A stretch of DNA of 64,000 nucleotides, taken from contig WFMF01000340.1 of NCBI GenBank assembly GCA_011033025.1, positions 124,001 to 188,000 on the forward strand. The letters are read 5' to 3'. The translations under genes were made by a program, and so were the position numbers. Positions 3,466 to 44,508 of the stretch are shown piece by piece. Below the pieces are notes generated by a model. That model saw only the letters and a list, made by a program, of their open reading frames with translations. It made no database searches and had not been told where the DNA came from. The stretch is from Beroe forskalii. Its lineage: Eukaryota; Ctenophora; Nuda; Beroida; Beroidae. The stretch's first letter is position 1. Every line of letters starts with the position of its first letter.

Positions 3466-6400
3466 AGTAACCCATTTGTGATTGAAAATTTGTTCGTATG
3501 ATGTTATCCTACCCTCGCGCGCGGCGCAACGTTCCACATTTGGACGTTACTTTGCAACCATCCAGTCAGAAGAAATAGATTGGAATAAGATTCTTTTTAA
3601 TTAAATTTACAAGTGCTTCATTCTGAAATTGTCGTTACTCTGTCTATTCAGTATATTATTTTATTTAATCTGATCTGTGTTGGATTAGATTTTATGCATT
3701 TTGTGGCATAAGAAAATTTGCCAATAGTCTTTTGATGTTCTTTTCATTATTTGAATTTAGATCAAATGCCATTCATATTTACTGATGTAACACCTACCTC
3801 ATGAACATGGTATTTTATGCTCCACATTGTGCTGTGTAAGTCTAGGTATTATGTCTGCAAAATGTCCTATCAAAAGTTAATAGTAGTAGAGTAAGTGATG
3901 TTTGTATACCATTCATTTTCATTTGTTAATATTCATTTTGTTTTAAATTGATATTATTGTTATTACTTGATATCAAGAAAAGTTTGATATTATTTTTTGA
4001 TTTAACTGTGCTTCTTTCAAAGTTTCAATATTCATTATGACCTGATTATCCAGTTTTTGTTTATCTATCAATTCTTTCATTATTCGCTTGCTAGCATTGT
4101 ATAATAAATAATCAATGTTCAGGTTGAAAATGACATGTAGCATATGTCGAAATATTCCTAAAATGACGGCTTTTTTATTTTGTTTTCAAGTTTATTTTAC
4201 TGCTCCGCTTCCTGCCCAATCTTTCATTTCCTTCTCTTTAGAGTAAGGTTAGAAATTGTGCCGTTTTTTGTAGATACTGTGCTTATAGAATACAGGGCAA
4301 GAAATTTATCATGATTAAACCTAACCTATAGTAGTTCAATTGAAAGAAATTAAATTGCAAAACTATTGAGGAACCTTCCTGGGATGGCCTTTTCTGAAAG
4401 TGATATGGCAGACCTACGGTCATCCTTGGCCTTGCATGGACAAGATCATCTACTAGCATTCTGGAATGAACTATCTGGTGCTCAAAAGAGGCATCTCTAT
4501 AAAGACATTAAATCTATAGACTTTGATAGTCACCTTGCTTGTTTTGACAGATGCATGCAAAAGGAATCCTCAATGCCAGGAGTAGAGGAGGACTTAAAGC
4601 CCCTTCCTTCTGATGCATTTGAAAGTGTCCTAGATTCAGATATAAACAATGAAAGATGGAAGAAATTGGGACTGAAGGAGATAAGTGATGGCAGGGTTGC
4701 TCTTCTCCTGATGGCTGGTGGCCAGGGCACTAGATTAGGTGTTAGCTACCCAAAAGGAATGTATAAAGTAGGCTTACAAAGTGGGAAGTCATTGTATCAG
4801 TTGCAAGCAGAGCGAGTTCGCCAGCAAGAAAAACTGGCTGCTGAGATGTATGGGACATCAAAAGCAATAAGATGGTATATCATGACCAGTGAGCATACTA
4901 AAAGTGGTACCACTGATTATTTCAAAGCTAATAACTGGTTTGGATTATGCAAAGAAAACATCATATTCTTTGAACAGGAAATGATTCCATGTATATTCTG
5001 GGTGGAAAATAATCATGGATAGTGACCATTCAATTGTTAGGCACCTGGTGGTAATGGTGATTTGTATAGAGCAATGGGTAATGAAGGAATACTGAAGGAC
5101 ATGCTAGATCATAATATAAGAAGTGTCCATTGCTATTGTGTAGATAATATACTTGTCAAAATACCTGATCCACTCTTCATTGGATGTTGCTTAGAAAGAA
5201 ATTCAGATTGTGGAGCTAAAGTTGTGAGTAAGTCACACCCTACTGAAGCTGTTGGTGTGATTTGCAAGAGCAATGGAAACTGGAAGGTTGTTGAATATAG
5301 TGAAATATCATCAGAAACTGCCCACATGACTGGTCCAAATGGCAAATTACTTTTCTCACAAGGGAATATTTGTAATCATTACTTCACAACAGATTTCCTT
5401 AGCCAAGTTATAAATGAAAATGAGAAAGAACTCATCCACCATAAGTTGTTAAGAAAAAGATCCCCACTATTTCTAGTTCAGGAGAAAAATTATCCCAGAA
5501 TCTATCAATGGCATCAAATGGAAAAGTTTGTGGGTTTGATGTATTCCAATTCTCAAAAAGTTTACAGTTCTTGAAGTTGCAAGGTATGATGAATTTTCCT
5601 CTGAAAATGGCCCTGGTGCAGATAAATGTTCACCAAAGACATGTCTTGAAGATTTGTCTAATTTGCATAAGCGTTGGATCAGAAATGTTAGTGGAAGCCT
5701 TGAAAATGAAAATGAAATACTTTGAAATATCACCACTTGGTGAGTGCTGATGGGAAAACCTTGAAGACATTGCTGCAAACAAAACAATCATACTGCCGCA
5801 GCACATTGATGTTCCAGTCAAAAATGGTTATCACAATGGTCATAGCAATGGATTGTATAGTAAGCTCTAAAAGTAAACTGTGATGCATCACATTGTAGTT
5901 GTCAGATATAATCCTCATACAGAATCCTGATGAGGTAATTTTTTTTAGAAGATAAAGTTCTAAATTATTATAGAAATGGTGTCATTAGATGTGATAACGC
6001 CACACTTTGGCATGACTGAGTAGCAGATTGCAAAGGTTTTAGAATGTATACCTATTAGATCCAGTGGCTAACAATAAACTTGTAAAGTTGTAAAGTAAAA
6101 CTTTTTCGAGGCAGATTCACGCTGAAGTATGTAACATTGCAACCTAGCTGTTTATTAAATATGCCACCAAATTTTGCCAATGTGTGATATTAGCAGACAG
6201 ATGAAACATGAATTATGAAAGTAATGAAGATTATATAGGTACTTGATTGATTTAACCAGACAAGCATTGTGATTATTCAACTGCCCATGACCTGGGTACT
6301 CATTTATGCTTTAGAACTCAATATACTGAGTAGGAACAATTCCTTCCTCTGCAGCTAACCTCTTAATGCATGGAGAGTTTGTGTTAGCTGGGCCTTACTG

Positions 6401-18600: not shown

Positions 18601-19957
18601 GGCTGCCTTAATTCATCGGCGCCTATAGGCGCCGAAAAAATAGGGAAGAACACAGATAGCTAGAGATCAATATCGGCGCCTATAGGCGCCGATACTTCAG
18701 ACCCGTACCGGGCCGTGGATCATGAAAAATATCACGATAGGTGCCTATAGGCGCTTATAGGCGGTGATGGCCGTACAGGCGCCTTTAGGCGGTCGAAAAC
18801 CGCCGATGTCGCCGAAAAGCGGTGTATAGGCGCTTTTCGGCGCCGATAGGCGCCGATGACCGCCGATCGAAAACTATCGGCGCCTATAGGCGCCGATAGT
18901 TTTCGATCGGTGGCCTATAGGCGCCGAAAAGCGGTACCGCCGTCACTGCGTGACTGTGTCGTAAGGGTGTTACTGTGTCGTGATGGTGTTACTGCGTGTT
19001 GCAACAGTGTTACTGTCGTAAGAATGAACTGTGTTGTAACGGTATTAGTATTACTGTGTCATAACGATGTGACTGTGTCGTAGCTGCTTTACTGTGTCGT
19101 AATGGTGTTATTGTGTTGTAACGACGTTATTGTGCTGTAAAGGTGTAACTGTGTCGTAACGGTGTTACTGTATTGTAACAGTTCTACTGTGTCGTAACGG
19201 TGTTATTGTCAGACGTCGTCTGAACATTATTTCAGACGGCGCGCCCCCGTCGTAGCAAGAGGGGGTCAGACAATGGTTGACAACGGTGTTACACTTACTG
19301 TGTTGTAACGGTGTTACTGCGGTTACTGTGTCGTAACGGTGTTACTGTGTCGTAACGATGTTACTGTGTCGTTATAACGGTGTTACTGAGTCGTACTGTC
19401 GTAACGGTGTGACTTAATCGTAACGGTTCTACATTGTCGTAACGGTGTTACTGTGTCGTAGAAATGAAACTGTGTTGTACTTGTAACTGTTCTACTGGCA
19501 CGTCAAATTTAACAAGTTGATTATGATCAGCGCACGGCCAGCAGGATCAGCGCAAACACGATCCATAGCGTTGATTTAACAGCGCTGATCTGATCAGCGC
19601 CGATGAGGAAAAATGGCGTTTACAAAGGCTCTTATGCAGGTGTTTTGGTCGGCGCTGATCAGCGCTGATTTTAGGCCATCAGCGCTGATCGGCGCTGATC
19701 AGCGCTGATTGATCGCCGATCAGCGCTGATCAGCGCTGATCGGCGCTGATCAGCGCCGATCAGCGCCGACGACCGCCGATGAGAATTTTAAAATTTCTGA
19801 TCAGCGCTGATCGGCGGTGTCGCTGATCAGCGCTGATCGGGCCCGATCAGCGCTGATCAGCGCTGATCAGCGCCGATCAGCGCTGATCAGCGCCGATCGG
19901 CGGTGGATCGGCGCTGATCAGCGCTGATCGGCGCCGATTGCAAAGTCAACATATGCC
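15602..19957. mobile_element. 4.36-kb foldback element FB1 with concentric satellite arms
   Basis: The termini are inverted copies: GGCAGATGTTGACTTTGCAA on the left and GGCATATGTTGACTTTGCAA as the reverse complement of the right end. The element is flanked by AATAACT on both sides (15595-15601 and 19959-19965), or an 8-bp duplication with one mismatch. Paired layers run inward: GATCAGCGCTGATC repeats (15610-16020 with 19510-19950), TTACGACACAGTAACACCG repeats (16100-17000 with 18945-19500, reverse complement), GGCGCCTATAGGCGCC repeats (17240-17670 with 18610-18930), and a TTTGGG/TTAGGG core (17700-18590). A 215-bp CGGTTAACCGG-type segment (17000-17215) exists only in the left arm, and a 70-bp TTGTCAGACG hairpin (19206-19272) only in the right. 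There is no transposase frame. Confidence 0.9.
17700..18595. repeat. Telomere-like TTAGGG/TTTGGG core with inversion point
   Basis: About 780 bp of interspersed TTAGGG and TTTGGG hexamers (17700-18483) switch abruptly at GGGTTGACCC (about 18480-18489) to CCCTAACCCAAACC-type repeats (18484-18590). The inverted part is only about 110 bp, so the core is asymmetric. It lies at the centre of foldback element FB1, not at a chromosome end, since ordered sequence continues on both sides. Long frames encoding Val-Trp-Val or Phe-Gly runs are by-products of the hexamer. Confidence 0.9.
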
Positions 19958-19965
19958 GAATAACT

Positions 19966-21186
19966 ACCCTACAGCACGGATTTTTGCCTAATCGTTCATG
20001 CACAACACAAATGATAAACACGGATGTTATATATTTCGATTTTGCAAAAGCATTTGATAGTGTAAATCATGACATAATTTTAGAGAAACTGAAATTTTCT
20101 TATGGCATTGATGGGTACCTACTGAGATTCATTAAAGAATATCTTAAAGGAAGGCAACAGTGCGTATCCATTGATGGTTCTCTCTCAGGCATGTCCCCAG
20201 TTCTGTCTGGGGTACCCCAAGGATCTATTTTAGGTCCATTGCTCTTTGTATTGTTTATCAACGATATAACTGAGGTTATTGACATCTCAACCAAGATTCT
20301 TCTTTATGCTGATGATATGAAAATCTTTAGGCAAATTAACAATGAACACGATCGTGTAATCTTGCAACAAGATATCAGCTCTCTCCAAAAGTGGGCTGAA
20401 CGTAATAAAATGCGCTTCCACCTTGATAAATGTAAAGTTCTCAATTGTAAATTAAGTAATAAGGCAAGCAGTAATTTCGAATACTATCTCTATGATACGA
20501 AACTTGACTACACGGATAACGAAAAAGATTTAGGAGTGCAAGTTGTCCCGTCTCTAAAATGGAATGCCCAGCACAAAAAATTACTAAATAAGGCCAGTCA
20601 AAAAATTGGCCTTCTTAGAAGAAATTGCTCCTTCAATAGAAACACAAATCAACGAAAAATTTTATTTTTAGCTATAATTCGGTCACAGTTTGAGCACTGT
20701 TCACAAATCTGGAGGCCAGTGCACAAAACAAACATTGATAAGTTTGAAGCCATGCAGAAAAGAGCCGTTAAGTGGGTTTTCAGTGAAGATTTTTGCAGCT
20801 ATACCAAATCAGAATACCACCTTAAATTAAAGAAACTAGATGTCCTGCCAATGAAATACAAGTTTGATTATAACGACTTAGTCTTGTTCTATAAGATGTT
20901 TAATCATCCTAGCCCATTTTCAAGTATCCCTGAATATCTTAGGAAGAAGCACCTCCCTGACCCAAAATTAACTCGATATACTAGGAGTATGTCATCATCT
21001 GATGAACTTCAATTAGAATGCTCCATAAAACCTAGAATAGATGTTTTTAAAAATTCATACTTCTACCGTACACATTTACTTTGGAATGAAGTTCCAGTAA
21101 ATATAAGATCTGAAAATTGCTTAGCAACCTTTAAGACTAAACTCAAGGAATATCTCTGGATGAAAGCGGACAGTGAATTTGACTAA
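19966..21186 (+). pseudogene. Non-LTR retrotransposon, second RT half (part 2 of 2)
   Basis: About 400 codons are open. QHGFLPNRSCTTQ is followed by DVIYFDFAKAFDSVNHDI (RT motif A), SGVPQGSILGPLLFVLFIND (motif B), LLYADDMKIFR (motif C, the catalytic ADD) and LDKCKVLNCKL, then a C-terminal region with FEHCSQIWRPV, RAVKWVFSEDF and THLLWNEVPVNIRSENCLATFKTKLKEYL before a TAA. About 15-20 residues usually present between the TTQ and DVIY blocks seem to be missing. When the foldback insertion and one AATAACT copy are removed, the frame joins part 1 exactly and reads DKITTLQHGF. The 3' UTR appears to run to about 21450. Comparison with part 1 shows that decay is confined to the 5' half. Confidence 0.85.
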
Positions 21187-23427: not shown

Positions 23428-26400
23428 TCAGAGTTTGGAGTGGAGTGACTCAGTGAACTGCAGGACCATCTCAGCCACTTTAGCCGCCAGTTCGTCAGCC
23501 AGCTCCTGAGTGGCGCACTCCGCGTGCACGCGCACACAGTTCTCAGTGCCACTTGGCCGCACGAAGCACCGCCCCTCACCACCCGCCACCGCGCTGATCA
23601 GGGTGTCTATCTGCTCCTGCAGGCCTGGGGGCGCTGAGACCTTCCTCTCTGCGTCACAGGTCTCAATCACATTCCGGTCCTTGATAGCCACCTTCAGTTG
23701 CCTGCGGAGGTAACAGGTTGGGGGAGGGGTAACTTGTAAATATTGTATCCTTATCTAATGGGGGAGGGGTGACTTGTAAACCTTGTACTCATGTCTAATG
23801 ATCAATGAAGATATCATGCGAAAGTAGTTATGTTTGTGTAAGGTCGGACAATATCATCCCAGAAATCCGTAAACCGCATTCACTCAATGAAGCAACGGAA
23901 ATCAAGATAAACCATATATGAAGATATGGAGTTATTTAAGTAATTATTTCTATTTCCATGGAGTTATTTACAAAGTTACTGACCTGTAAGGGAGGTCTCT
24001 GTAGATGGCGTCCCAGCTCTCAGCAGTCATTGACTGCAGCGAGAGAATGGTTTCAATGGCGAGAATATTGGTGATAGCATCACCCACAGCTGTGTTGATG
24101 AGTTTGGTGAAGGAGTAGAGTTGTCTGGCGGCAGCGTCTTGCTGGGTCTCTGGAGAAGTTAAATGTGGAGGAATTAAGTGAGTTGGACTAACACTCAATA
24201 TTTTATAATGTTTTGAGGTGTTTAGTAAGTAACCAACCACAATAAATTAAAAGAATAAGCGCAGCCAGGTAGTCTATTATTCAGGAGCTTATTATTTAGG
24301 AGAAGAATTTTGATAATTTATTTACTTATTTTAATCATTCCAGCTCTGCTCATGTATTTCTACCTCATAAGTTATTAAGCTTTTATTATTTGGACCTTTC
24401 GGTGACTTTAATTGCAAATGACATGACTTATACAGCAGTTTAAAACATTGAATAAAAGGATGTTTGACTTATGCTACTCTCAAGGCATAGCAAATTATCC
24501 TTCACAGTGTGACAAAGCTCCAACGATTCTCAGAATTTCGTGCATTAAATCTCTATATTATATGCTCATATTATGGTTGGTCTTCTAGAACTTTGCATAT
24601 TCTTTACCAGTGGAGCATGGGAAAACTATCAAATTTCAAAATAAATGTCGGCCAAGTGTGTGATGTAATTAGCATAGTTCATTAAGCTTATTAACGGCAC
24701 TCCATACCTATCCAAAGTTCCAGTTTGAAAGAAGAAACCAACTATTAACATGAAAAGTGAAAATACAGTGAATCTGTGCAACCCGACGCCCACTACCCTG
24801 GTTACCTGCAGCCTGGTGTATGGCCTCCATAGCTCGCTCACTGAACAGCACAGTCCCGTGCCCATTAGCCTCGAAGTAGACCCCGACATCGAACTCCTCC
24901 GCCTTTTTGTGGAGGTGTTTCACCCCGGTGGGCACACAAGAGGTGGGGATGCCTTGCCCAGAGAGGTAGGAGGTGGCGCTGCCATTAGCATACGCAGTCT
25001 GTACCACCTGGGGAGAAATGGGTTTAGGGGGGCTCAATAGAAGGAGTGAGGGGTGCTCAAGAGCTCAAGTGAGGGGTGAGGGAGGGAAGCTTAAAAAAGG
25101 GAGACATGATATGGGGAAGGTTAATGATATATTATTATTTTGTTTATTGCTGTACCGAGGTTATTAAAGTAGGTATTTGGCAACTTGAATTGTTATGAAA
25201 CTTGATGACACTTTATTATCAAGTACCCAAACTCTGCTAGTACAATACTGTAAAATACTAGGAATACATAATTAAGGAATTAAGGCACCTGCACGATGCA
25301 CATTGCACAAGTAGCGCTGAATTACACTGATAAAATTTTCAGAAAATAATGTGAATACCTTAGGAGGTGTAAAGTTTTAAACTTGACAACACTACTTTAT
25401 ACTTTTATACAATCAACGCTACTTGAACAAAATCATATCATAGCTTCAACTCACCCCAATGTTTAGGTCTAGCTTTGCATCCTTAAGCAGCTTGTTGATA
25501 AAACCCGCATACAGGCACGCTATCTTGTCCCCATCCAGGAGAGAAAACTTACCATCCTGAAGAGTAAGCTGGGGTTAGAAATACTCAGTGATTCAGTGTC
25601 TTGTACTTACCATCCTGAAGAGTAAGCTGGGCTTAGAAATACTCAGTGATTAGTGATTCCAGAAAAATAGTGTTAGAAAGAACTGGTGTTAGAAATACTC
25701 AGTGTCTTGTACTTACCATCCTGAAGAATAAACTGGTTTTAGAACTTTAGAAATACTCAATGATTTGTTCTGGGATGGAAGTACCAACTAGGTCAACTAT
25801 CTAACTTCACAACTATGTTAACAGCATCATCGCACTGTACAGAAACTACGTAACTAGGTACTCCAACTTAACAGTCAAACTCACTAACTCACTAACTCAA
25901 TAACTGTAACATTATCTTAAATCATGGAATATATGAGCTCAAGCAACTCCTTGGAATTTAAATGCTTCCTCAATTATTAATTTAGATTCTTTAAAAGCCC
26001 CCCATGCTAGGTACTTAGAAATACGTTCTACTTGCGTCACTAGATCATGGTAACTAGGTAACTACATTTCCTGGCAACTGAACTGATGAATATTATATGC
26101 GTGTTACAACTCCAGTGGAGGACTCAGCAGCTATTGTGTCAAATGTTGGTTTTATTGTATAAAGAGTATCATAAACAAAGTTTGTTTCTCAACAGAAATC
26201 CAGATTGCCTCAGCCTGGTGCATTAATCCCATTGTCAGTATTATTGAGAATTTTACATTTATTTCTGAAGTAAGGATAAAAACAACCTCACAATTATTCA
26301 CAATGTGGCATAGTACAATGCATATTGTATTTTGTAATTTAAAACCATAACAAAACAAGTTTCTCGAATTCTAGATCACTCATTTAGTTACGTGTAGTAG

Positions 26401-29400
26401 GAATTACTTTCTTCTTTACTACAAAGGATTACAAAAGATCCCTAATCCCTTTAGTAAATGGCAAGCATGTAAAACATGCATTTTTGGAGGTCGAAAAATC
26501 GTGTGTAAGTAGGTACACATTGTGCCCCTGGAGGCCAAACGGCCATCAGTGAGCTCGAAATGCAAACTGATTATTTTCATTAATTGTACAATTTGCTGTA
26601 GCCTATTTTTCTGAGAAAAGTTGTCCGATCACTCGGCAACCCATTGGTTAAATTATTGACATGGATCAATATCATATTTGATAGGATCAATATAATATTT
26701 GAATATTCCCATATCATTCGTTCATACACACTTTTCTTTTGGTTGTGCGTCTGTTATCAGCAGTAATTATCTGTGCACGATAAGATTGCAGCAGTGCCCT
26801 TACTTTGTGTAAATTCACCGAATACATTGAGGAATGCCAACAGTAGCTGAGAAATACAAGTTTTCAGAAGTGGAGAGTGATGGGAAGAGTTTCATTACCG
26901 AGATACTAGAGCAGAGTAAAGTGTACCGTGTAGAGAACGTGAAACTGGACAATGTGATGCGAGCTGGAAACAAGGACTTGATTGCGAATCAGCTAATGCG
27001 TGCTCTGGTGCTCATTGAGAGGCAGCAGAACATGATCATTAATCAGCGTGTCCGTATTCATGCGTTTCAGGAGGACGTTATGAAACTTCAGACTGACTTG
27101 CTCAGCGCTAGAGAGACGCAGAAACAGACTGAGTTGAGTGCTTCAGCTAGGAGAATGTGTAAGGAGGTTACAGAGAATATTGGGGGTGTTAAAAAAAAGG
27201 AATATGCAAGGAGGTTTCAGAAACTGTGGATGGGGCTATCAAGAAAGGAATAAATTCAGACGTTTCGAAAAGTTTTGAGGGGTTTGTGAAAGAGGGCATG
27301 AAGTCCTACAGTGATGTAGCACAGTCCGTTAAAGATAGCATCAAGTCTTACAGCGAGGTTGCACAATCTAGTGTGAATATGAGTACTGGTACTGTGGAGA
27401 CGCTGAGGAATGTGGTGAAACAAGTGGCTGTCGAGGAAGAACTCAGCAAGAATATCATGGTGTTTGGCCTCCCGGAAGCAGAGAGTGAAGAACTGGAAGA
27501 TTCAGTCAGTACGATGTTTCAGCACTTGGGAGAGAAACCGCGGTTTGAAGCTGCCCGTCTTGGCAGGAAGAAAGATTCAGTGGTACGTCCCATCAGAGTT
27601 GTTCTTTCTACTGCGCACGGAGCTCAGGCTATTCTTGCCAGGTCCAGGAATCTGCGCCACACGGACAAATTCAAGAAGGTTTTCCTCTCTCCAGATCGGA
27701 CTGTTGATGAGAGAGTAAGGCAGCGGGAGCTAGTCCTTCAACTGAAGACAAAGATGGAACAGGAGCCAGAATATAAGCACTTTATCAAAAGTGGACAGAT
27801 TGTTAGTGTAAACAAAACTAGCGATACGACCTGAATATTTGTGTTAGCAGAGTTCTTTTGTTGCATATGTCACGGGAAGATATTTTGCCTTTTTGTGCTG
27901 TTAACTTCATCATGATCATCTACACAAAACTTAATTGTTTTCACGTTTTCATTTTGATTGTTGATTAAGAGGGGATTTTGTTATACTTTGCGGTATATGC
28001 TTTGGGTAATACTGAAGCCCGTGACTTAAGTGTTGAGCTTTTTATCTATAACTCATGTATTATATTATTTTAAGGCGTTAGTGCCACTCCGGTTAGGAGT
28101 TCAAAAAACAAAAAGCCGCGAACCTGCAAACCTGGTTCGGGGGAAATTTTGAGCCGGGGGAAATTTTAGGGAAATTGGAGGAAATTTTAGGTGGAAGCCA
28201 AGTACAGAAAATTTGATTTAACACCAAAAATCACTATGTTTCACCCGAATTATATTGAAATAAATTTTAAAAATTCGAATTCAAATCGTTCTTGTACTAA
28301 CTAACAGTTTTCAGTGATAGGATGTAATTAGTGAAATTATGTACAACAAAAGGGATGGAGCTGTTGAGATGAAAACAATGCAAAAACTCTATTGAGGTGA
28401 CATTTCTTGACGCTCCACACCTCTGGCTTCTGGGGGCTGCCGCCCCCAGACCCCTGCTTTTCTTTCTCTTCATTTTGAATATATTTAGTGAAATTACAGT
28501 ATGTACAACTAAAGGGATTGAGCTGTTGAGATGAAAACAATGCAAAAACCCTATTGAGGTGACAATTCTTGACGCCCCACACCTCTGAGCTATGGGGGCT
28601 GCAGCCCCAGACCCCTGCTTTTCTTTCTCTTCATTTTAATTAAATATATTTAGTAGAAATTATGTACAACTAAAGGGATGGAGCTGTTGAGATGAAAACA
28701 ATGCAAAAACCCTATTGAGGTGACAATTCTTGACACTCCACACTTCTGGCTTCTGGGGCTGCGGCCCCAGACCCATGCTGTTCTTCTTTTGATTTTTGAT
28801 ATATTTAGTGAAATTATGTGCAGCAAAAAGATGGAGCTTTTGAGATAAAAACAGTGCAAGATCTTACTGAGGACATTTCTTTACACTCCAGGCTCTGGCT
28901 TCTGGGGCTGCCGCCCCAGACCCCTACTAACGTTAATACATACTTGAATTATTTCTACATTCAGAAAACGTCATTTTGCAAATGAAGCGCCAGAGGGCTA
29001 AAAAATTTGCACGCCCCAAAAATTCTGGGCTGGATCCTTGCCTGTTAATAAGCAATGAATAATTCCCTGTTCTAGATCAGCTTCTAATGAGAGCCTTTTA
29101 ACTTCTAATATATTAGAATAATAACTTTAGTTTTTAAGAAATAAAAAAAAGCAAATCTTGCTAACTGCTTGCTTTGCTTACAAAATATAGTCAATTTCGA
29201 GAGCGAAGCGAGCGGGCTGCAAAATGGGCAAAAATTTCTGGTTCGGGGGAAATTTTTTATTTTTTGGATATGGGTGAATATTATTTGATAGGCAAATTAT
29301 GCGAATCATGTCCTCCTGCTCTTGCATCCTGGTCCCAGCAGTAATTCTTCGCAAATATCATTGTTGCAATGATTCGATCAACTCCTGTCACTGTTTTTTT

Positions 29401-32400
29401 GAATGATTTATTTTGAAAAAACACCATTGAATCTTTTTATTCAATTATAATAGTCTCACGCACATTTAACATAGCTCCTCTGCGAATTACATCCCTTGAT
29501 ATCTAGCGTCTCTCACATACACTTTATAAGGATGCTAAATGAAAAACCCATCTATTACATGAGCTCTATTTGATAAATCCGACACCGCATCAATGTTATA
29601 TCTTCTCTACATCAACATCATATAAAATAGATCTTTGCTAATTCACATGTCAAGATATCATGCGTCTTCTTTGTATCCTCATGTAATTTATAGCCCCAAG
29701 ATGAATATTATTCACAGTCATCCCCAAACCACAGCTACATATAACCTACGTGTTACAAATATGCGAAACACGTTCGACTATTATATTACTTTAGCGAAAG
29801 CCATTCATAACATATCTAAATTTATCACGGCTCCACTCTTCGAGTGTCGCGTGATAAATTAGATATAAATATTTCGTAGCAAGCTACTCAATATTTATAT
29901 CCTATTACATACTCATTTCATTCGTATGTAATAGAGATATGTTAATTCCTGGTCTTTCGCTAAAGTACATATAATCATTCGATTACGACACTTGCATAAT
30001 ATGTCTATGAGCAAGTTATGATCATGATAATATTATGAGCATGATATTGAATTATCCCTTCCTTCATCATTATTATTTTTTGCCTACCTAAATTATATAG
30101 ACACTAGCAGGCCCGTTGGACCTGCTAACACACAGCTAACCCGGCGCTACTATGCAGGACCTCTTTCGCAAATTTTACACACTACCATTCAAATTGATTG
30201 GATAGTTTTTACCGCATCAAAATATTCTTATCAGATCAAATAAATCAAATATTAAATTTTATGAAGGAGCAGGTTGGAAAATAGAACTTCGTCGGTAACT
30301 CTTAGTGGTGCTAAACCGTGTGAATTTTGTTCCGTTTTTGATTGCAAGATGATATTAATTCTGACAACTGATTATCATACTGACATTGGACAATTTTGTT
30401 TCGTTGTTCCAGCCCAGGATCAATTCTTTGTTATCTGCTTCAGCTACATTCGACTCGATTAGATTAGACACTTTCGTAAACTTTGAATTGCTCTTAACGG
30501 TATATTTTAAACTGCAATTACTACTGTTATCATTATTGATCATCGAGAAAGATCTGCCACAATTTTATGAAAACAATTCATCTGAAATATCCTCTGTTAT
30601 TCAAATTATGACCTTTCTCCATCTTGAGATCTTGACTTCGAAGTATAAGCTTATAAGGAAAACGTCAAATTTTCAAAAACTACAGCACAGCATTTAAAAG
30701 TAGTAGCGTAATAGAAAGCTCGCATGGTACTGTTTGTAATCTGCACGTGCACCAAAATCGGTTTCCATAGCAACGGCGCCTCATTTCTCCCATTTGCATT
30801 CGTTTCTCTTGATATTTTCTTGGCAAGCTCAAATTTAATTGTGGACGGCGGCACATACAAACATTATTCACGTGTGACTTTACTTTATATATAAGATGGA
30901 TTGAGTAGATTACAGCACTTCTGTACGGTGTTTTGTAGATAAAAATACCATATTATGTCGAGTAAGATGAGCTAATATTATAGAATTGTTGTGTTTGGAG
31001 TTTATTATAAGAAATTAAGAGCTCCTCATGTTCAATGTTCATTAGCATTGTACACTGTTATAGTCATAGCCGGCTAACGAGTGGACAACGACACTACAGT
31101 CTGCTTACACCACTTTCCATCTTCTGTCTACAAACAAAATTTAGAAAATGAATTAAACAAAAACAACATAATTAAGTAATTATAATGAGGGATTTGGAGG
31201 AGTGTCATTGTCTGTTTTGTCTGTGTCTGCATCTGTTTTTACTTTTTTTTAATTTCTATACCGACAAGCAAACACAACAGACATGTCTTTTTGTCTATTT
31301 TTCAAAAACAGAGGGAAATGGATGCAAAAACGGGAAGAAAATGGGGCCTAAAATGGGGCATAAAAAATAAAAAGGTGTTCGCTACGGGCACGCTCGGGGC
31401 AAAAAAGGAGGCGTCGACGGAGCGGTCAATGACCTCAGTAGGTACACTGTACCGTGTAAAAACTGTACCAACTCACTGTCTGTGACCTGTACGAACACAC
31501 CGTAGATTTAAAGATTTAACACTATACACAATACACCGACATACACTGTACAGTAAACTGTACTGTACAGTAAACTGTACTGTACAGTAAACTGTACTGT
31601 ACACTGTACAGTACACTGCACTGTACGTCAGAACACTGCACAGACTGCGTCTGTACAGGCTCACTCACACACTGACTCACACAGTAGTAGAAGAAGAGAG
31701 ATCTATCAGCGTCCCCGTCAATAGAGTAGCAGTGTTCCCTGTCAGCACTCGAAACTCCGTGAGGCGCGCACTGCTTCAACTGAAGGAGGAGGAGGGTGAT
31801 GGGAACACACTTACTTGGGAGGATTCAGTCCACCGACAATGGTTCAAACTTTCAAAATGGTGTCGTCAGCTGTTGTTGATTATAAAAGGAAATAGGCTTT
31901 CCTCCTTTCTCTTATTAAAAGTGGGAAAAAGTTCTCAAATCCAGATTTGAGTGCAACACAACACTTCGGAAAATACAATAAAGATCAATCTCTACATTTT
32001 CTCATCATTTATCAGAGATTTGGCTATGATATTGTAACTAACCTTCACATAATCAGCACCACAACGTTCGTTGAGTTCCCCCTTACTACCATCATTGCAG
32101 ATCTGTATGTCTAGATACTGTGAGATAAGGGGAGAGAGGGCGGCTAGGGCACATGCCCCCACACCATTCGCACAGTCAACCTGCAACGAGATGGGAGTTA
32201 GAACTAGAGGCGTATACATCGCAACATTATTACCAGAAGGTGCAGAGCGAACCCTGTACGGAGCCCTACGGTTTCAGTTCCTTGTTTAACGACCCCTCAG
32301 GACTCCATTAACCCCTGATCCCGATGAACAAGACTTGATTATTTAACTTTATCACTCCGTTGCATTTACTCATTTATGAAGCTAAATAACAGAACTGCAG

Positions 32401-34135
32401 CTCTACAGGGTGACCAAGGCTTCTACCGCTTATATTATGTTCATATGCACAAATTATTCAAGTCGAGGATTTGCTTAAATTAGCTTTTTACTCTAGGATT
32501 ATGTGTATTATATGCAAGGAATACTTGAATACTCAAATGTCAGACAGTCTTATTGATACATACATACATAACTCAACAATGAGACAGTCAAGATCACTAA
32601 TTACATACTTTGATAGACTTGACTGTGTCGGGTATCCCGTATAAAGAGGTGAAGCTCTTTGAGAAGTTACCATAGTAATCTGCCATGGTGTGAGGGAGAG
32701 AGAGGTTTCCCTGTTTGACGATCCAATGAAGTTGTGGGGTCGTACAAACACCAACATCAGCCACCTGCAAACAATCACTTTAGTTTATTTCAAAATTAAT
32801 AAGTAATTTATTTATTCTCTATCGACTCAATCGTACAACTGTACAAGTACAAATGTAAACGAAGATTTCGTCGTTCTACGACATCTTCAGGTCTCAAGTA
32901 GTGTCGTAAAGTTTTGAACTTTAAACACTTTGGATCACTCTGCCAATGGTCCACCTGACCTACTCGAAAGACACCATCACTAAAATATTCTACAGAAAGC
33001 TGGCCCGACAATGGTGGAAGGATAGGAATTATTATACCAAAAAGAGACACTTCAAGCACAAAATGTTAAATATGAGATAATGCACATACAGCTAGAACAT
33101 AAATCACGTGGGCCATGCGAAATACAGCAAATTAACTCGATTGAAACTAAATCGCCGGAAAAACTCACACTACATTTTAAATTCTCTGCTCCGGCAGTAA
33201 CAGCAGCAACTATAGCTGGACCACTGGTCCGCGTATCACGTCCAATCACAACACCTCCCTCTGTGGAGTCAAGGTCTGTTCCTATCTTCTTAGCGAGGTC
33301 CTTCAACACCTTGGTAGAGTATTATTGGGGTTATTGTTTATCAATTATCAAAGGAGAATCATCTTATCTGTGTGTGGAGGCATTCAACACGCAGTAAGTA
33401 AACTAATTGCTGATAGGTACCCTCCCTCTTATATCGATGATACAGTTAACAACTAACCATGATATTCCAATATTCCCATCCTTGATAGTTTTATTTTATT
33501 TGTACGATCTCTATGTTTGTAAAAATGGCATTAAATTTAAATTACTTATTTTCTTCTGCTATTCTCACCTCTAAGACTGAGTTAGAAGGAGTGTTTGATA
33601 TGAGGGTAGCATACTCCTCCCACTCAGAAAGCAGCATCTCCCCCAGAGGCTCCACCACCTTCAGTCCGTTGTCAGGGGAAGGGTTATGCGATGCTGTCAC
33701 CATCACACCTACTCTACTTCCCACTGTCTTAGCCCTGGGATATATTGGTAGAGTTCACTCGAATTATACCACTTCTATTGACAAGTTACTAACTACTAAA
33801 AGGAGGACGGAGAGATCCTCCTCGCAGAGGCCAGTGTCTCAGTGTGTTCAGGATGGGAACTAGTCCCATTCCCATCAGGTCCCAGCAGACCCGTGAGGAA
33901 TTTGGTGAAACCGGCTTGAATTTCAAGATAAAGCATTATTCATTAAGCAAGGTGACATATTTTACATGACATTAAATACCCTCTCCAATTACCTCAACGC
34001 AGCCAGGAGTCCCATTCTATAGGCTGCTGGTTCGAGAACATCAGCTCTACACCTGAATCCAGCAGTTCCATAGGAGTACTTCAAGTTATCATGGAGAGGG
34101 TAATTACCAGCTGATTTCCTTATTTCATCATCCAT
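23428..34135 (-). CDS. PGM3: Phosphoacetylglucosamine mutase, ten coding exons, 528 aa, C-terminal SKL
   Basis: The enzyme converts GlcNAc-6-P to GlcNAc-1-P in UDP-GlcNAc synthesis. Exons, minus strand: 34135-33993, 33734-33569, 33309-33169, 32764-32609, 32180-32043, 31779-31681, 25556-25455, 25007-24806, 24149-23984 and 23701-23428. All introns are GT-AG, all phases join, and the total is 1,587 nt. Landmarks: YGTAGFR near the N terminus; catalytic Ser63 in TASHNP; VVIGRDTR (123-130); metal-binding DGDADR (269-274); sugar-binding EANGHG (361-366); phosphate-binding RPSGTEN (486-492). Length is close to the human enzyme (about 540). The start is chosen because upstream sequence is non-coding and the N terminus aligns. 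The last residues are LHSKL, a canonical PTS1, absent from the human protein as I recall it. Intron 6 (6.1 kb) holds a retrotransposon ORF1 and a satellite. UAP1 lies 1.9 kb upstream on the same strand. Confidence 0.95.
25549..25740 (-). repeat. Tandem copies of the exon 7 splice-acceptor region of PGM3
   Basis: On the minus strand, exon 7 starts after TTACTCTTCAG with GATGGTAAG. Two more copies of this junction lie just upstream in intron 6 (around 25605-25620 and 25711-25726). Each has the acceptor followed by GATG and then GTAAGTAC, a strong donor. The unit also contains AGAAATACTCAGTG on the plus strand. The copies could act as decoy acceptors or define a 4-nt micro-exon. Confidence 0.65.
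26834..27834 (+). mobile_element. ORF1-like protein of a non-LTR retrotransposon, in PGM3 intron 6 (antisense)
   Basis: The first frame (26834-27253) encodes an alpha-helical, probably coiled-coil N-terminal part (LIANQLMRALVLIERQQN). The second (27226-27834) holds a conserved domain with NIMVFGLPEAESEELE, RLGRKKDSVVRPIRVVLS, RNLRHTDKFKKVFLSPDRT and LVLQLKTKM, then G-x-IV. This order resembles the RNA-binding region of ORF1 proteins of invertebrate LINE-type elements. The two frames overlap by 28 nt. The join lies at a run of eight A residues (about 27191-27198), and reading across it with a -1 shift gives two similar copies of a CKEV-SE/TE-G--KKGI repeat. No endonuclease or RT follows, so it is either a 3'-deleted element or a lone ORF1. 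The sequence is inserted opposite to the host gene. Confidence 0.7.
28130..28935. repeat. Tandem satellite, about 160-bp unit, four copies, within PGM3 intron 6
   Basis: Units begin near 28338, 28500, 28661 and 28818 with AAATTATGTACAAC-AAAGG, followed by GATGGAGCTGTTGAGATGAA, a CCTATTGAGGTGACA block, and a short GC-rich inverted repeat of the type TGGGGGCTGCCGCCCCCA. Spacing is 157-162 bp. The overlapping minus-strand frames (28297-28859) repeat HCFHLNSSIP and exist only because of the unit. Confidence 0.8.
29788..29966. repeat. Multi-branched inverted-repeat element (cloverleaf-like)
   Basis: A 13-bp outer stem pairs ACTTTAGCGAAAG (29788-29800) with CTTTCGCTAAAGT (29954-29966). Inside it AACATATCT (29809-29817) pairs with AGATATGTT (29935-29943). 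Three hairpins are enclosed: 29812-29866 (about 16 bp plus an inner CACTC/GAGTG stem), 29865-29898 (ATAAATATT/AATATTTAT plus GTAG/CTAC) and 29902-29934 (an 11-bp perfect stem CTATTACATAC). It lies in PGM3 intron 6. A MITE is the simplest reading; a structured RNA is possible but untested. Confidence 0.65.
31540..31625. repeat. Short palindromic tandem repeat (ACTGTACAGTAA type)
   Basis: Alternating GTACAGTAAACTGTACT units, about five copies, lie just inside PGM3 intron 6, 55-140 bp downstream of exon 6 on the minus strand. Each unit is self-complementary. Confidence 0.8.
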
Positions 34136-34810
34136 TGATCTGTGGTTGAACATTCATTATACCTCTTCCAGACTCGTTTTACTGCACATTGGGTGCAACT
34201 ATTGAGCTTAAAACGAATAATTCAACCAAGTCAGGTGACTTTTGCAATTTTTCATCACTTCCATCCAATAAGAATTTCAATATCTAATTTCATTCGATTA
34301 ATTTGTCTCAATATTATGATCCTGTCCAGGGGGAAGAATACTGAGCGAAAAATTGAAATACTAAATTGAATGAATGCAATGAATCAAAACTGTATGAACA
34401 GGAAGTCAGTTTAGATATATTAATTGATCATTTACAATGAATGTGATAAAACTATTGCAACTTGCAGTTTATAATCTACTCAAATTGAAAGTATCTTTTC
34501 ACGGTACGATAGGAATATTTTGAATTTTGATGATCAACTGATCAAGAAACCCAGATGAAAAATAGTTAACATTTATTCATCATGGAGGTTAAAACATTTT
34601 TAAGGTGTCCACAAGAATTTTATACCAACCACTGTAAGTAACGGTAGTTTGTCAGCTGGCAGGAAATAAACCCATGTACTATGGCTAAAACAGGAGTAGG
34701 TACATCAAAAGAACTCAATATTTAAAAATCTAGAATTAATTCAACAGCAGCATTACACTCCATAAATCAGTTTTGCTAAAAATATTTCAGTTAAAATCAT
34801 CTCTATAATG

Positions 34811-35152
34811 TACGATTAACAAACGAATGGGAGTGTGATATCGAAAATTATCACACGAGGCGTCAGCCGAGTTTGACAATTTTCGATACCACACGATCCA
34901 TGAGTTTGTTAATTGTATTATTACCCGACAAAACAGTACTCCCTCCCACTCGGGTCTGACGACCCTCGTCTGAATTCAACGTTTTTATAGATTTTGAGTG
35001 CTCCTTCATAAAATCAACAATTTATTCAACGATATTCTGCTCTATTATTCCGCCACTGTACAGTAGTTCTATGAAGGAGTGATATATCGATAATTATCAC
35101 ACTGGAGTTTGAGCCACGGGAGGGTAATAATGTAATTTGTAAACATGCACAT
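34811..35152. repeat. Inverted-repeat element between PGM3 and UAP1
   Basis: ATTAACAAAC (34815) pairs with GTTTGTTAAT (34905), and inside it GTGTGATATCGAAAATT pairs with AATTTTCGATACCACAC. A competing short hairpin GTGTGATA/TATCACAC is also possible. A related GAGTGATATATCGATAATTATCACAC lies at 35070-35095, and the flank GGGTAATAAT-AATT-ACAAAC recurs inverted at 35127-35152. It looks like a MITE with a partial second copy in the 1.9-kb interval upstream of PGM3. Confidence 0.55.
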
Positions 35153-35795
35153 ATACAGTAGTACAGGATATGATAACCTAACTGTACTGATTTATGTATG
35201 CTTGAATTAAAAACACAAGATACTTGGAATTATCTTCATGATCATACAATAATTTAAATTGGATCATACAATAATTTAAATTTATCTATAAATTATGATT
35301 ATTGCCTGTTATTGGGCCATATCATTGCCTTCTTCAATCTTCATATCAAACGCTTCTAGAAGAATATAATATTTTGTATCATAATCCAGCATAACGACAT
35401 GCTATGATATGCAACTTAAAGCAAAAAACGATAATGTCCATTTTGTTTATTAATATCAGCAAGATTAGAATTGCAGTAAGGCTCAGCTAACACAAACTCT
35501 CCATGCATTAAGAGGTTAGCTGCAGAGGAAGGAATTGTCCCTAATCAGTATATTGAGTTCTAAAGCATAAATGAGTACCCAGGTCATGGGCAGTAGAATA
35601 ATCACAATGCTTGTCTGGTAAAATTAATCAAGTACCTATATAATCTTCATTACCTTCATAATTCATGTTTCATCTGTCTGCTAATATCACACATTGGCAA
35701 AATTTGGTGGCATATATAATAAACAGCTAGGTTGCAATGTTACATACTTCAGTGTGAATCTGCCTCGAAAACGTTTTACTTAACAACTTTACAAG

Positions 35796-35801
35796 TTTAT
35801 T
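35796..35801 (-). promoter_or_regulatory. Candidate polyadenylation signal of UAP1
   Basis: AATAAA on the minus strand, 199 bp downstream of the UAP1 stop codon. The hexamer is conserved in the other copy (6072-6077). Confidence 0.45.
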
Positions 35802-35999
35802 GTTAGCCACTGGATCTAATATACATTCTAAAACCTTTGCAATCTGCTACTCAGTCATGCCAAAGTGTGGCGTTATCACATCTAATGACACCATTTCTAT
35901 AATAATTTAGAACTTTATCTTCTAAAAAAATTTACCTCATCAGGATTCTGTATGAGGATTATATCTGACAACTACAATGTGATGCATCACAGTTTACTT

Positions 36000-37490
36000 T
36001 TAGAGCTTACTATACAATCCATTGCTATGACCATTGTGATAACCATTTTTGACTGGAACATCAATGTGCTGCGGCAGTATGATTGTTTTGTTTGCAGCAA
36101 TGTCTTCAAGGTTTTCCCCATCAGCACTCACTAGTGGTGATATTTCAAGTATTTCATTTTCATTTTCAAGGCTTCCACTAACATTTCTGATCCAACGCTT
36201 ATGCAAATTAGACAAATCTTCAAGACATGTCTTTGGTGAACATTTCTCTGCACCAGGGCCATTTTTCAGAGGAGAAAATTCATCATACCTTGCAACTTCA
36301 AGAACTGTGAAACTTTTTGAGAATTGGAATACATCAAACACAAACTTTTCCATTTTGATGCCATTGATAGATTCTGGGATAATTTTTTCTCCTGAACTAG
36401 AAATAGTGGGGATCTTTTTCTTAGCAACATGGTGGATGAGTTCTTTCTCATTTTCATTTATAACTTGGCTAAGGAAATCTGTTGTGAAGTAATGATTACA
36501 AATATTCCCTTGTGAGAAAAGTAATTTGCCATTTGGACCAGTCATGTGGGCAGTTTCTGATGATATTTCACTATATTCAACAACCTTCCAGTTTCCATTG
36601 CTCTTGCAAATCACACCAACAGCTTCAGTAGGGTGTGACTTACTCACAACTTTAGCTCCACAATCTGAATTTCTTTCTAAGCAACATCCAATGAAGAGTG
36701 GATCAGGTATTTTGACAAGTATATTATCTACACAATAGCAATGGACACTTCTTATATTATGATCTAGCATGTCCTTCAGTATTCCTTCATTACCCATTGC
36801 TCTATACAAATCACCATTCCCACCAGGTGCCCTAGCAATTGAATGGTCACTATCCATGATTATTTTTCCACCCAGAGATATACATGGAATCATTTCCTGT
36901 TCAAAGAATATGATGTTTTCTTTGCATAATCCAAACCAGTTATTAGCTTTGAAATAATCAGTGGTACCACTTTTAGTATGCTCACTGGTCATGATATACC
37001 ATCTTATTGCTTTTGATGTCCCATACATCTCAGCAGCCAGTTTTTCTTGCTGGCGAACTCGCTCTGCTTGTAACTGATACAATGACTTCCCACTCTGTAA
37101 GCCTACTTTATACATTCCTTTCGGGTAGCTAACACCCAATCTAGTGCCCTGGCCACCAGCCATCAGGAGAAGAGCAACCCTACCATCACTAATCTCCTTC
37201 AGTCCCAATTTTTTCCATCTTTCATTGTTTATATCTGAATCTAGGACACTTTCAAATGCATCAGAAGGAAGGGGCTTTAAGTCTTCCTCTACTCCTGGCA
37301 TTGAGGATTCCTTTTGCATGCATCTGTCAAAACAAGCAAGGTGACTATCAAAGTCTATAGATTTAATGTCTTTATAGAGATGCCTCTTTTGAGCACCAGA
37401 TAGTTCATTCCAGAATGCTAGTAGATGATCTTGTCCATGCAAGGCCAAGGATGACCGTAGGTCTGCCATATCACTTTCAGAAAAGGCCAT
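36000..37490 (-). CDS. UAP1: UDP-N-acetylglucosamine pyrophosphorylase, intronless, 496 aa, C-terminal SKL
   Basis: The enzyme makes UDP-GlcNAc from GlcNAc-1-P and UTP, the step after PGM3. The frame is a single exon. HGQDHLLAFWNEL near the N terminus matches the family (human GQEHLLRFWNEL). LLLMAGGQGTRLG (107-119) is the UTP-binding loop, followed by YPKGMY, WYIMTSEHT, KENIIFFEQEMIPCISLGGK, APGGNGDLYRA, SVHCYCVDNILVKIPDP, GAKVVSKSHPTEAVGV, VVEYSEIS, GNICNHYFTTDFL, NGIKMEKFVFDVFQ and EFSPLKN. Length is close to that of animal UAP1 (about 500-520). The first ATG (37490) is chosen; in-frame sequence extends 6 codons further without an ATG. The last residues are LYSKL, a canonical PTS1. The lack of introns, unlike neighbouring PGM3, suggests an ancient retroposition or intron loss. 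PGM3 begins 1.9 kb downstream. Confidence 0.96.
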   Translation of the reverse strand: MAFSESDMADLRSSLALHGQDHLLAFWNELSGAQKRHLYKDIKSIDFDSHLACFDRCMQKESSMPGVEEDLKPLPSDAFESVLDSDINNERWKKLGLKEISDGRVALLLMAGGQGTRLGVSYPKGMYKVGLQSGKSLYQLQAERVRQQEKLAAEMYGTSKAIRWYIMTSEHTKSGTTDYFKANNWFGLCKENIIFFEQEMIPCISLGGKIIMDSDHSIARAPGGNGDLYRAMGNEGILKDMLDHNIRSVHCYCVDNILVKIPDPLFIGCCLERNSDCGAKVVSKSHPTEAVGVICKSNGNWKVVEYSEISSETAHMTGPNGKLLFSQGNICNHYFTTDFLSQVINENEKELIHHVAKKKIPTISSSGEKIIPESINGIKMEKFVFDVFQFSKSFTVLEVARYDEFSPLKNGPGAEKCSPKTCLEDLSNLHKRWIRNVSGSLENENEILEISPLVSADGENLEDIAANKTIILPQHIDVPVKNGYHNGHSNGLYSKL

Positions 37491-37866
37491 CCCAGGAAGG
37501 TTCCTCAATAGTTATGAAATTTAATTTTTTCAATTGAACTTCTATAGGTAAGATTTTATCCTGATATATTGCTTGCCATGTATTCTATAAGCATAGTATG
37601 TACAAAAATCATCACTCAATTTCTAACCTAACCTAGGATTCTAATACTGCTGATATTCAAGGACACATTTCATAGGGTGTAGCTCGTTAATGACTCTAAC
37701 TTAATTAACCTAGAAAATGAATTAATAGATAAACAAAAACTGGATAATCAGGTCATAATGAATATTGAAACTTTGAAAGAAGCACAGTTAAAACAAAAAA
37801 TAATATCAAACTTTTCTTGATATCAAGTAATAACAATAATATCAATTTAAAACAAAATGAATATTA

Positions 37867-38100
37867 AGGCACCTGTAATGTTTGTCTGTCGATCGAATGG
37901 AATTGGTCGATTGATCAACTCCATTTGAACAAATGATGAGTTTTACTGGTCCATAGTGACTTGAATTATGTTTAAATGAGCAATATTTAGTTGTTTCCCT
38001 ACTAGCTGGAAGATTATCTACTTAAAACACATCAGTCAATCAAATTAATTTGATTGATTGGCCTATTCCATGCGATCGACCGACAAACATTACAGGCACC
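37867..38100. mobile_element. 234-bp MITE with TA target duplication
   Basis: The ends are imperfect inverted repeats (CCTGTAATGTTTGTC on the left; its complement GACAAACATTACAGG on the right). The element is flanked by TA (37865-37866 and 38101-38102). The other arm of the duplication provides the empty site: there the sequence reads through with a single TA (near 3927-3932). The TA target points to the Tc1/mariner group. It has no coding capacity. It inserted after the UAP1 block duplicated, or was lost from the other copy. Confidence 0.8.
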
Positions 38101-38638
38101 TAACAAATGAAAATGAATGGTATACAAACATCACTAACTCTACTACTATTAACTTTTAATAGGACATTTTGCAGACATAATACCTAGACTTACACAGCAC
38201 AAAATACCATGTTCATGAGGTAGGTGTTACATTAGTAAATATGAATGGCATTTGATCTAAATTCAAATAATGAAAAGAACATCAAAAGACTATTGGCAAA
38301 TTTACCTATGCCACAAAATGCATGAAATCTAATCCAACACACATCAGATTAAATCAAATAGAAATCTGAATAGAATAGACAGAGTACCGACAATTTCAGA
38401 ATGAAGCACTTGTAAATTTAATTACAAAGAATTTTTCCAATCAGGAAACAAATTATTAATCACTAATGGGTTACTGGGCAATTCCTTAGCCCGCATAGGT
38501 GTGTGTACACGCCGCAGAGGTGTGTGCTTGTCTGGCGTTGACAGACCCTCTCGAGATTTGCTCTAACCAGATCCCTACTTTTACGCGCGCGCGCCGCGCC
38601 TTGCTCCAAACCAGGGCTCTATTTCTGGCGAACAGTTA

Positions 38639-43028: not shown

Positions 43029-43164
43029 CACCAAAACCGTTGGACGGTTGGTCTAGTAACCCCCGCTGGTTTGGATGTGATCAACCCATTTGTCTCTTTT
43101 CAGGTTCCGTTGTCACATCCAAACCCGCGGGGGTTACTAGACCAACCGTCCAACGGTTTTGGTG
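43029..43164. repeat. Long hairpin, copy 1
   Basis: Arms of about 52 bp (CACCAAAACCGTTGGACGG ... and complement) are separated by a loop containing TTTCAGGTTCCG. The right arm has CCGCGGGGG where the left has CCCCCGCTGG. Confidence 0.9.
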
Positions 43165-43701
43165 GTGATATCTTGACAGATGTATGTTTGAACCCATGTT
43201 ACTTGCCCAAAGGCAGTTTGGACCCACGTAACTTGCCCTCACGTAGTCCGTACCCACGTTATAAGCTCACACGCAAGTCTAACCCACGTAACTCACCCTG
43301 ACGAAGTCCAAAACTACGTTATACTAACTTGGATTTACTAGAATTGATATATTTCTTAATTTCTACAAATCATCCATGTGAACTCACGTGCTGAAATATA
43401 GCAAACAGATCTAATTTCACGTGCATCAGTCGTATTTGAACTCATTTCAACGTCACCAAGTCGAAAATCCCATGTAAATATCAATTTCTTCAAATCCCCT
43501 AATTTCTACAAATCGTCCACGTGAACTCGCGTGCTGAAATATAGTAGCCAGTTCTAATTTCACGTGCAGTAGTCGTATTTAAACTCATTTAAACGTAATC
43601 AACTCGAAAATACCGTGTAAATATCAATTTCTTCAAATCCCCTAATTTCTACAAAACGTCCGCGTGAACTCACGTGCTTCACTAGTCCATCGTATATTTC
43701 T

Positions 43702-43958
43702 TCGTTATTCGGACCCCCGTTATTTGGACCCCAGTTATTGGGACCGCCATTATTCGGACCCCCGTTATTCGGACCCCCGTTATTCGGACTCCCGTTATTC
43801 GGACCCCCATTATTCAGACCCCCGTTATTCGGACCTCCGTTATTCGGACCCCTGTTATTCGGACCCCCGTTATTCGGACCCCTGTTATTCGGACCCCCGT
43901 TATTCAGAACCCCGTTATTCGGACCCCCTTTATTCGGACCCCCGTTATCCGGACCCCC
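43702..43958. repeat. 15-bp minisatellite GTTATTCGGACCCCC, block 1
   Basis: About 17 copies with scattered point changes. The period is a multiple of three, so every frame is open (RYSDP, LFGPP and so on); these are not genes. Confidence 0.9.
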
Positions 43959-44361: not shown

Positions 44362-44508
44362 CACCACCAAAACCGTTGGACGGTTGGTCTAGTAACCCCC
44401 CGCTGGTTTGGATGTGATCAGCCTATTTTGTCTCTTTTCAGGTTCCGTTGTCACATCCAAACCCGCGGGGGGTTACTAGACCAACCGTCCAACGGTTTTG
44501 GTGGTGAT
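44362..44508. repeat. Long hairpin, copy 2
   Basis: Same arms as copy 1, with both sides extended to CACCACCAAAACC/GGTTTTGGTGGTG. Confidence 0.9.

What the first reader, a model, noticed from the sequence alone, without database searches (positions are those of the whole stretch)
23428..37490. Adjacent UAP1 and PGM3 both end in SKL: a possible peroxisomal UDP-GlcNAc pathway
Seen: the UAP1 frame ends LYSKL-stop and the spliced PGM3 frame ends LHSKL-stop. The second UAP1 copy also keeps SKL. Known: C-terminal SKL is the canonical PTS1 bound by PEX5. The hexosamine pathway is usually cytosolic in animals, and the human proteins, as I recall them, end without a PTS1. In kinetoplastids sugar-nucleotide enzymes are placed in glycosomes, which are modified peroxisomes. 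Inference: in this organism the last two steps of UDP-GlcNAc synthesis are targeted, at least partly, to peroxisomes. One SKL by chance is possible; two on consecutive, neighbouring enzymes is hard to ascribe to chance.
Basis: partly seen in the sequence, partly recalled or inferred. Interest (0 to 1): 0.88.

Follow-up and report, generated by a model that had tools for sequence, protein, structure and literature searches.

The report
Peroxisome tags on comb-jelly UDP-GlcNAc enzymes
In comb jellies the enzymes for the last two steps of making UDP-GlcNAc, an activated sugar that cells use to build sugar chains, end in a peroxisome address tag that the other animal versions examined mostly lack, so part of this normally cytosolic pathway probably runs in peroxisomes.

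Summary
UAP1 (36000-37490, minus) ends NGLYSKL; PGM3, rebuilt from ten exons (34135-23428, minus), ends ESLHSKL. The window is from a ctenophore. All 11 UAP1s in the clade holding the window and Bolinopsis end SKL although the tail before it varies; 0 of 110 other listed UAP1s do. The only other recognisable ctenophore PGM3 (Mnemiopsis, 65% identical) ends LHSRL, an equivalent PTS1; 0 of 119 other listed PGM3s match the motif. The genome search found one intact UAP1, one PGM3, and PEX5 and PEX12-type genes. Both tags lie on predicted exposed ends. GNA1, the step before, has no PTS1 in the likely ctenophores read, nor has UDP-glucose pyrophosphorylase: the signal is specific to the last two steps. 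The second UAP1 copy is a broken inverted duplicate, not independent support. Best reading: PGM3 and UAP1 shared between cytosol and peroxisome, fed by imported GlcNAc-6-P. Location, direction and export are untested; GFAT was not reached; none of three other proteins chosen as PTS1 controls showed a PTS1. Kinetoplastid glycosomes are the known parallel; my searches found nothing in print for animals.

The parts
36000..37490 (-). UAP1 (UDP-GlcNAc pyrophosphorylase), intronless CDS, 496 aa
   Evidence: PF01704; matches human AGX1/AGX2 structures
36003..36011 (-). UAP1 C-terminal SKL (PTS1), on a tail predicted disordered (residues 481-496)
23428..34135 (-). PGM3 (phosphoacetylglucosamine mutase), ten exons: 34135-33993, 33734-33569, 33309-33169, 32764-32609, 32180-32043, 31779-31681, 25556-25455, 25007-24806, 24149-23984, 23701-23428
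23431..23439 (-). PGM3 C-terminal SKL (PTS1)
   Evidence: Mnemiopsis equivalent SRL
4384..5870 (+). Broken inverted duplicate of UAP1; SKL codons at 5859-5867 retained as DNA only

Best explanation
In ctenophores PGM3 and UAP1 are PTS1 cargo of PEX5. Shown here: both C termini, conservation of the signal, one intact gene of each in the genome search, a PEX5 gene with conserved binding stretches, and no PTS1 on GNA1 or UDP-glucose pyrophosphorylase. Inferred: a share of each enzyme is imported into peroxisomes and the rest stays cytosolic. GNA1 makes GlcNAc-6-P in the cytosol; some of it enters peroxisomes, where PGM3 turns it into GlcNAc-1-P and UAP1 turns that into UDP-GlcNAc (or UDP-GalNAc). 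The product is used there or exported by an unknown route.
For: SKL in 11 of 11 UAP1s of a 100/100-supported clade, invariant at the end of an otherwise variable tail. SKL to SRL in Mnemiopsis PGM3, a change inside the PTS1 consensus. 0 of 110 other listed UAP1s end SKL and 0 of 119 other listed PGM3s match [SAC][KRH][LM]. Tail of UAP1 predicted disordered; Mnemiopsis PGM3 end lies beyond the last helix. PEX5 exons and a Pex2/Pex12-family gene. One intact UAP1, one PGM3. OGT encoded, so UDP-GlcNAc is also needed in the cytosol.
Against: No localisation data. None of the other proteins chosen as PTS1 controls in this genome showed a canonical PTS1 at the stop I read: ACOX (two genes, EARVR and EDRVR), MLYCD-like (DLLGG), HSDL2-like (MREKL); these readings are of genomic frames, and alternative last exons are not excluded. 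GNA1 is not co-targeted, so substrate import is needed. 4 of 110 non-clade UAP1s match the loose motif (two AKL, two AHL), so such endings do turn up sporadically. PGM3 conservation rests on two species.
Confidence: 0.72

Rival explanations
1. The C-terminal S-[K/R]-L is a class I PDZ ligand or another docking motif and both enzymes stay cytosolic.
For: S-x-L at a free C terminus also fits the class I PDZ pattern (recalled); localisation is untested.
Against: A PDZ ligand leaves the middle position free (recalled), but it is K in 12 and R in 1 of the 13 ctenophore sequences read (11 UAP1, 2 PGM3); serine and leucine are invariant; PEX5 is present.
Confidence: 0.08
2. The enzymes enter peroxisomes but run in reverse, breaking down UDP-GlcNAc with pyrophosphate released by fatty-acid activation.
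For: Both reactions are reversible (recalled); GNA1 is not co-targeted, so forward flux inside depends on imported GlcNAc-6-P.
Against: No direct evidence; in T. brucei the organellar enzymes are treated as biosynthetic (PMC7909634, abstract passage and Introduction).
Confidence: 0.1
3. Both SKL endings are chance or inherited passively without function.
For: 4 of 110 non-clade UAP1s match the loose motif; only two PGM3s are known.
Against: Joint chance about 7.5e-6 by composition; the ctenophore UAP1 subtree sums to about 3.1 changes per column (my sum of branch lengths), yet SKL is unchanged in 11 of 11 while most of the tail varies; PGM3 changes only within the consensus.
Confidence: 0.07

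Closest known systems
Nucleotide-sugar synthesis in kinetoplastid glycosomes (T. brucei UAP, PAGM, GNA)
   Same: UAP carries a PTS1 and PAGM and UAP are found in a peroxisome-derived organelle (PMC7909634, Table 1).
   Different: There GNA and most other nucleotide-sugar enzymes are glycosomal too, GNA without a listed PTS, and T. brucei UAP has the atypical ending SNM (PMC7909634, Discussion passage). In ctenophores only the last two steps carry a PTS1 among the enzymes read, in an animal; independent origin is inferred.
Human and other animal UAP1 (AGX1/AGX2) and PGM3
   Same: Same families and folds.
   Different: Listed mammalian sequences end e.g. VKNGI (UAP1, P0041) and GERPQPGF (PGM3, e.g. 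P0161), without PTS1.
Dually localised animal enzymes LDHB and MDH1 (PTS1 by stop-codon readthrough)
   Same: A cytosolic metabolic enzyme gains a peroxisomal share through a C-terminal PTS1 (PMC4207609, passages).
   Different: Here the PTS1 is part of the normal reading frame, not a readthrough extension.

Membership tests
UDP-GlcNAc pyrophosphorylase (UAP1) | PF01704 domain and AGX-type fold | tested here: met
   PF01704 169 bits against cut-off 22; Foldseek best hits human AGX2/AGX1, TM about 0.9
UDP-GlcNAc pyrophosphorylase (UAP1) | Enzyme activity | not testable with these tools
   Nucleotide-binding LMAGGQGTRLG stretch is intact in the sequence; motif meaning recalled
Phosphoacetylglucosamine mutase (PGM3/AGM1) | AGM1-specific Pfam domains and fold | tested here: met
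   PF21404, PF21405, PF02878, PF00408 over cut-off; Mnemiopsis orthologue model matches fungal AGM1
Phosphoacetylglucosamine mutase (PGM3/AGM1) | Phosphoserine TASHNP and DGDADR metal loop | tested here: met
   Both strings present in the spliced protein; roles recalled
PTS1 peroxisomal matrix protein | C-terminal S/A/C-K/R/H-L/M | tested here: met
   SKL on both; conserved in 11 of 11 clade UAP1s and as SRL in Mnemiopsis PGM3
PTS1 peroxisomal matrix protein | Accessible C terminus | tested here: met
   UAP1 residues 481-496 pLDDT below 50; Mnemiopsis PGM3 ends beyond its last helix 516-534. Predictions only; window PGM3 itself not modelled
PTS1 peroxisomal matrix protein | PTS1 receptor in the genome | tested here: met
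   PEX5 exons on C691, best 61% identical to human TPR domain
PTS1 peroxisomal matrix protein | PTS1 seen on ordinary peroxisomal proteins of the same genome (positive control) | tested here: not met
   ACOX, MLYCD-like and HSDL2-like end otherwise at the stops read; last-exon alternatives not excluded
PTS1 peroxisomal matrix protein | Import into peroxisomes | not testable with these tools
   Needs microscopy or fractionation
Glycosome-type whole UDP-GlcNAc pathway | GNA1 in the organelle | tested here: inconclusive
   No PTS1 on GNA1 (window species, Bolinopsis, P0243) and no PTS2 seen by eye, but T. brucei GNA is glycosomal without a listed PTS (PMC7909634, Table 1)
Glycosome-type whole UDP-GlcNAc pathway | GFAT in the organelle | not tested
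   TIGR01135 search unanswered 12 times (last)

The most novel reading that the evidence does not exclude
Since the ctenophore ancestor, peroxisomes have been a main or obligatory site of the last two steps of UDP-GlcNAc synthesis: an animal counterpart of kinetoplastid glycosomal sugar-nucleotide synthesis, evolved independently, with single-copy PGM3 and UAP1 serving the organelle, GlcNAc-6-P entering it and an unknown carrier exporting the product.
Probability: 0.3. Interest if true: 0.88.

Novelty: new variant of a known kind. Interest (0 to 1): 0.73.

Why it matters
UDP-GlcNAc feeds N-glycans, GPI anchors, chitin and O-GlcNAc signalling (recalled), and eukaryotic nucleotide-sugar synthesis is generally known or assumed to be cytosolic (PMC7909634, Introduction). 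A conserved PTS1 on the last two enzymes across one of the earliest animal branches would be a new case of pathway relocation. It would imply GlcNAc-6-P entry into, and nucleotide-sugar export from, peroxisomes, and it can be tested with a simple tagged-tail assay.

Tried and rejected
Second UAP1 copy as support: rejected. It is an inverted duplicate with indels. Within the CDS 16 substitutions and 16 gap positions separate the copies; the first eight substitutions, at window 37071-37284, all fall at third codon positions and the protein there is unchanged, so it is a very recent duplicate or a second haplotype; which of the two was not settled.

Whole-pathway relocation by PTS1: not supported, GNA1 has none. 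A second, likely ctenophore-derived GNA1 record, P0261 (64% over half the query), runs into a different, probably mispredicted end and was not counted. Separate cytosolic UAP1 or PGM3 paralogue: none found. General SKL bias of nucleotide-sugar enzymes: not seen (UDP-glucose pyrophosphorylase ends RILDH).

Positive control for PTS1 in this genome: failed. Two ACOX genes end EARVR/EDRVR, the MLYCD-like frame DLLGG, the HSDL2-like exon MREKL; the only Lon gene found ends KVIAS and reads as the mitochondrial type. The names HSDL2, PEX12, MLYCD and Lon type are my readings of the sequences. NAGK: family PF01869 gave nothing, inconclusive for an intron-rich gene. GFAT: not completed. One search included a PGM3 row (P0125) in a UAP1 alignment by mistake and was replaced. 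One search had one exon boundary off by one, corrected. One search failed through a wrong file name.

Full report
What is there. UAP1 is a single open frame at 36000-37490 on the minus strand, 496 aa, ending NGLYSKL. PGM3 lies downstream on the same strand. I assembled ten exons between 34135 and 23428; all nine introns are GT-AG and the 528-aa protein ends ESLHSKL. Pfam places both in the right families. The UAP1 model (mean pLDDT 90) matches human AGX1 and AGX2; the model of the Mnemiopsis PGM3 (mean pLDDT 92) matches fungal AGM1. The UAP1 stop and the PGM3 start are about 1.9 kb apart.

Organism. The best named UAP1 match is Bolinopsis microptera, 73% identical; an unnamed protein is 86% identical. 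The best PGM3 match is Mnemiopsis leidyi, 65%. I conclude that the window is from a ctenophore, species unknown. Its assembly has 216 Mb in 1134 contigs.

Conservation of the UAP1 signal. I read the C termini of all 120 listed homologues, the best of 4220 with E up to 0.001. P0002-P0011, ten proteins at 58-86% identity, all end SKL: LYSKL, LHSKL, FHSKL, YHSKL or FNSKL. With the window they form one group with 100/100 support in a 35-row tree. Only P0004 carries a species name; that the other nine are ctenophores is inferred from the tree. In an alignment of the 11, the tail varies in length and sequence; from residue 474 on only two NG pairs and SKL are invariant. Of the 110 other listed UAP1s none ends SKL; four match the loose motif [SAC][KRH][LM] (P0050 and P0074 AKL, P0068 and P0096 AHL). 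A divergent ctenophore UAP1 below the best 120 would not have been seen, but the search of the window's own genome found none.

Conservation of the PGM3 signal. Of the 120 listed homologues, the best of 6268, only P0122 (Mnemiopsis) is named as a ctenophore, and no other listed protein exceeds 51% identity. It ends EALHSRL against ESLHSKL here. SRL is an accepted PTS1 (recalled), so the change stays inside the consensus. None of the other 119 matches the motif; a few of those are truncated or alternative-isoform predictions. PGM3 conservation thus rests on two species.

Accessibility and receptor. The last 16 UAP1 residues have pLDDT below 50. The Mnemiopsis PGM3 end lies beyond its last helix, 516-534. 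The genome encodes PEX5: three exon matches on contig C691 at 61, 40 and 38% identity to the human TPR domain, keeping LWNxLGATLAN and GYIRxRYNLG, stretches that hold PTS1-contacting residues in human PEX5 (recalled). A Pex2/Pex12-family gene is present; its sequence reads as PEX12.

Specificity within the pathway. GNA1, the acetylating step before PGM3, was read from four exons of the same genome and ends KFFD. Bolinopsis GNA1 ends KFFD and an unnamed close relative, P0243, KNFD; a further likely ctenophore record, P0261, has an aberrant, probably mispredicted end without PTS1. None of the 41 GNA1s found matches the motif, several of them partial. UDP-glucose pyrophosphorylase ends RILDH. Among the enzymes read, the signal marks the last two steps only. 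Absence of a PTS1 does not prove a cytosolic place: T. brucei GNA is glycosomal without a listed PTS (PMC7909634, Table 1). GFAT was not reached.

Copy number. The genome search found one intact UAP1 plus its broken inverted duplicate, and PGM3 domain III only in the window gene. OGT, which uses UDP-GlcNAc in cytosol and nucleus (recalled), is encoded. A single UAP1 with a PTS1 therefore has to serve the cytosol too, by incomplete import, or its product has to leave the organelle.

Controls against the reading. I looked for ordinary peroxisomal proteins with a PTS1 in this genome and found none: two ACOX genes, an MLYCD-like and an HSDL2-like gene end otherwise at the stops I read, and the one Lon gene found reads as mitochondrial. 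Alternative last exons were not excluded. SKL endings are thus not common among the few proteins read, but the PTS1 route in this species lacks a demonstrated ordinary cargo.

Literature. In T. brucei nucleotide-sugar synthesis sits in glycosomes: Table 1 of PMC7909634 lists UAP with a PTS1, PAGM in glycosome and, in procyclic forms, cytosol as well, and GNA glycosomal without a listed PTS (Introduction read; Discussion and abstract in passages). PMC9512073 (passages) describes the same for kinetoplastids. PMC4207609 (passages) shows dual targeting of animal LDHB and MDH1 by readthrough. Nine searches of open-access full text listed nothing on peroxisomal UAP1 or PGM3 in ctenophores or other animals: searches listed every paper found (9, 19, 3 and 1); some searches listed 20 of 30, 12 of 39, 12 of 1344, 10 of 26 and 12 of 53. 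I saw titles and abstract starts only. Preprints and most subscription papers were not searched.

Judgement. Import is likely, flux direction and importance are open, and the claim should be limited to the last two steps.

Noticed in passing
window 3435-6534 (+) and 35341-38507 (-): A roughly 3 kb inverted duplication about 29 kb apart carries a second, broken UAP1; 97% identity over the longest block, eight early coding substitutions all synonymous. Second haplotype, assembly effect or very recent duplicate.
   Followed up: partly
window 36000-37490; P0002, P0010, P0011: UAP1 is intronless here, and intact single-frame copies sit on database contigs of 22.7, 42 and 458 kb, so UAP1 may be intronless across ctenophores, as after an old retroposition. 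That those contigs are genomic is inferred from their length.
   Followed up: no
P0050, P0074 (Glandiceps talaboti), P0068, P0096 (Musca), P0040, P0111, P0118: Some non-ctenophore UAP1s end AKL or AHL, and three (P0040 is Culicoides, the others unnamed) end HKL: possible sporadic PTS1-like endings, several after an NG-rich tail.
   Followed up: no
window 23428-37490: Two consecutive enzymes of one pathway are same-strand neighbours, about 1.9 kb apart, unusual for an animal; conservation of the order in other ctenophores could not be checked.
   Followed up: no
L009, L010 (contig C181): Two near-identical ACOX-type genes about 24 kb apart, ending EARVR/EDRVR without a PTS1 at the stop read.
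   Followed up: partly
window 1927-2454 (-) and 19918-21183 (+): Reverse transcriptase domains (PF00078) of retroelements.
   Followed up: no
window about 43040-43165, 43700-43960, 44370-44510, 44540-44750: Short palindromic elements with long matching arms beside arrays of a TTATTCGGACCCCCG unit (seen by eye).
   Followed up: no
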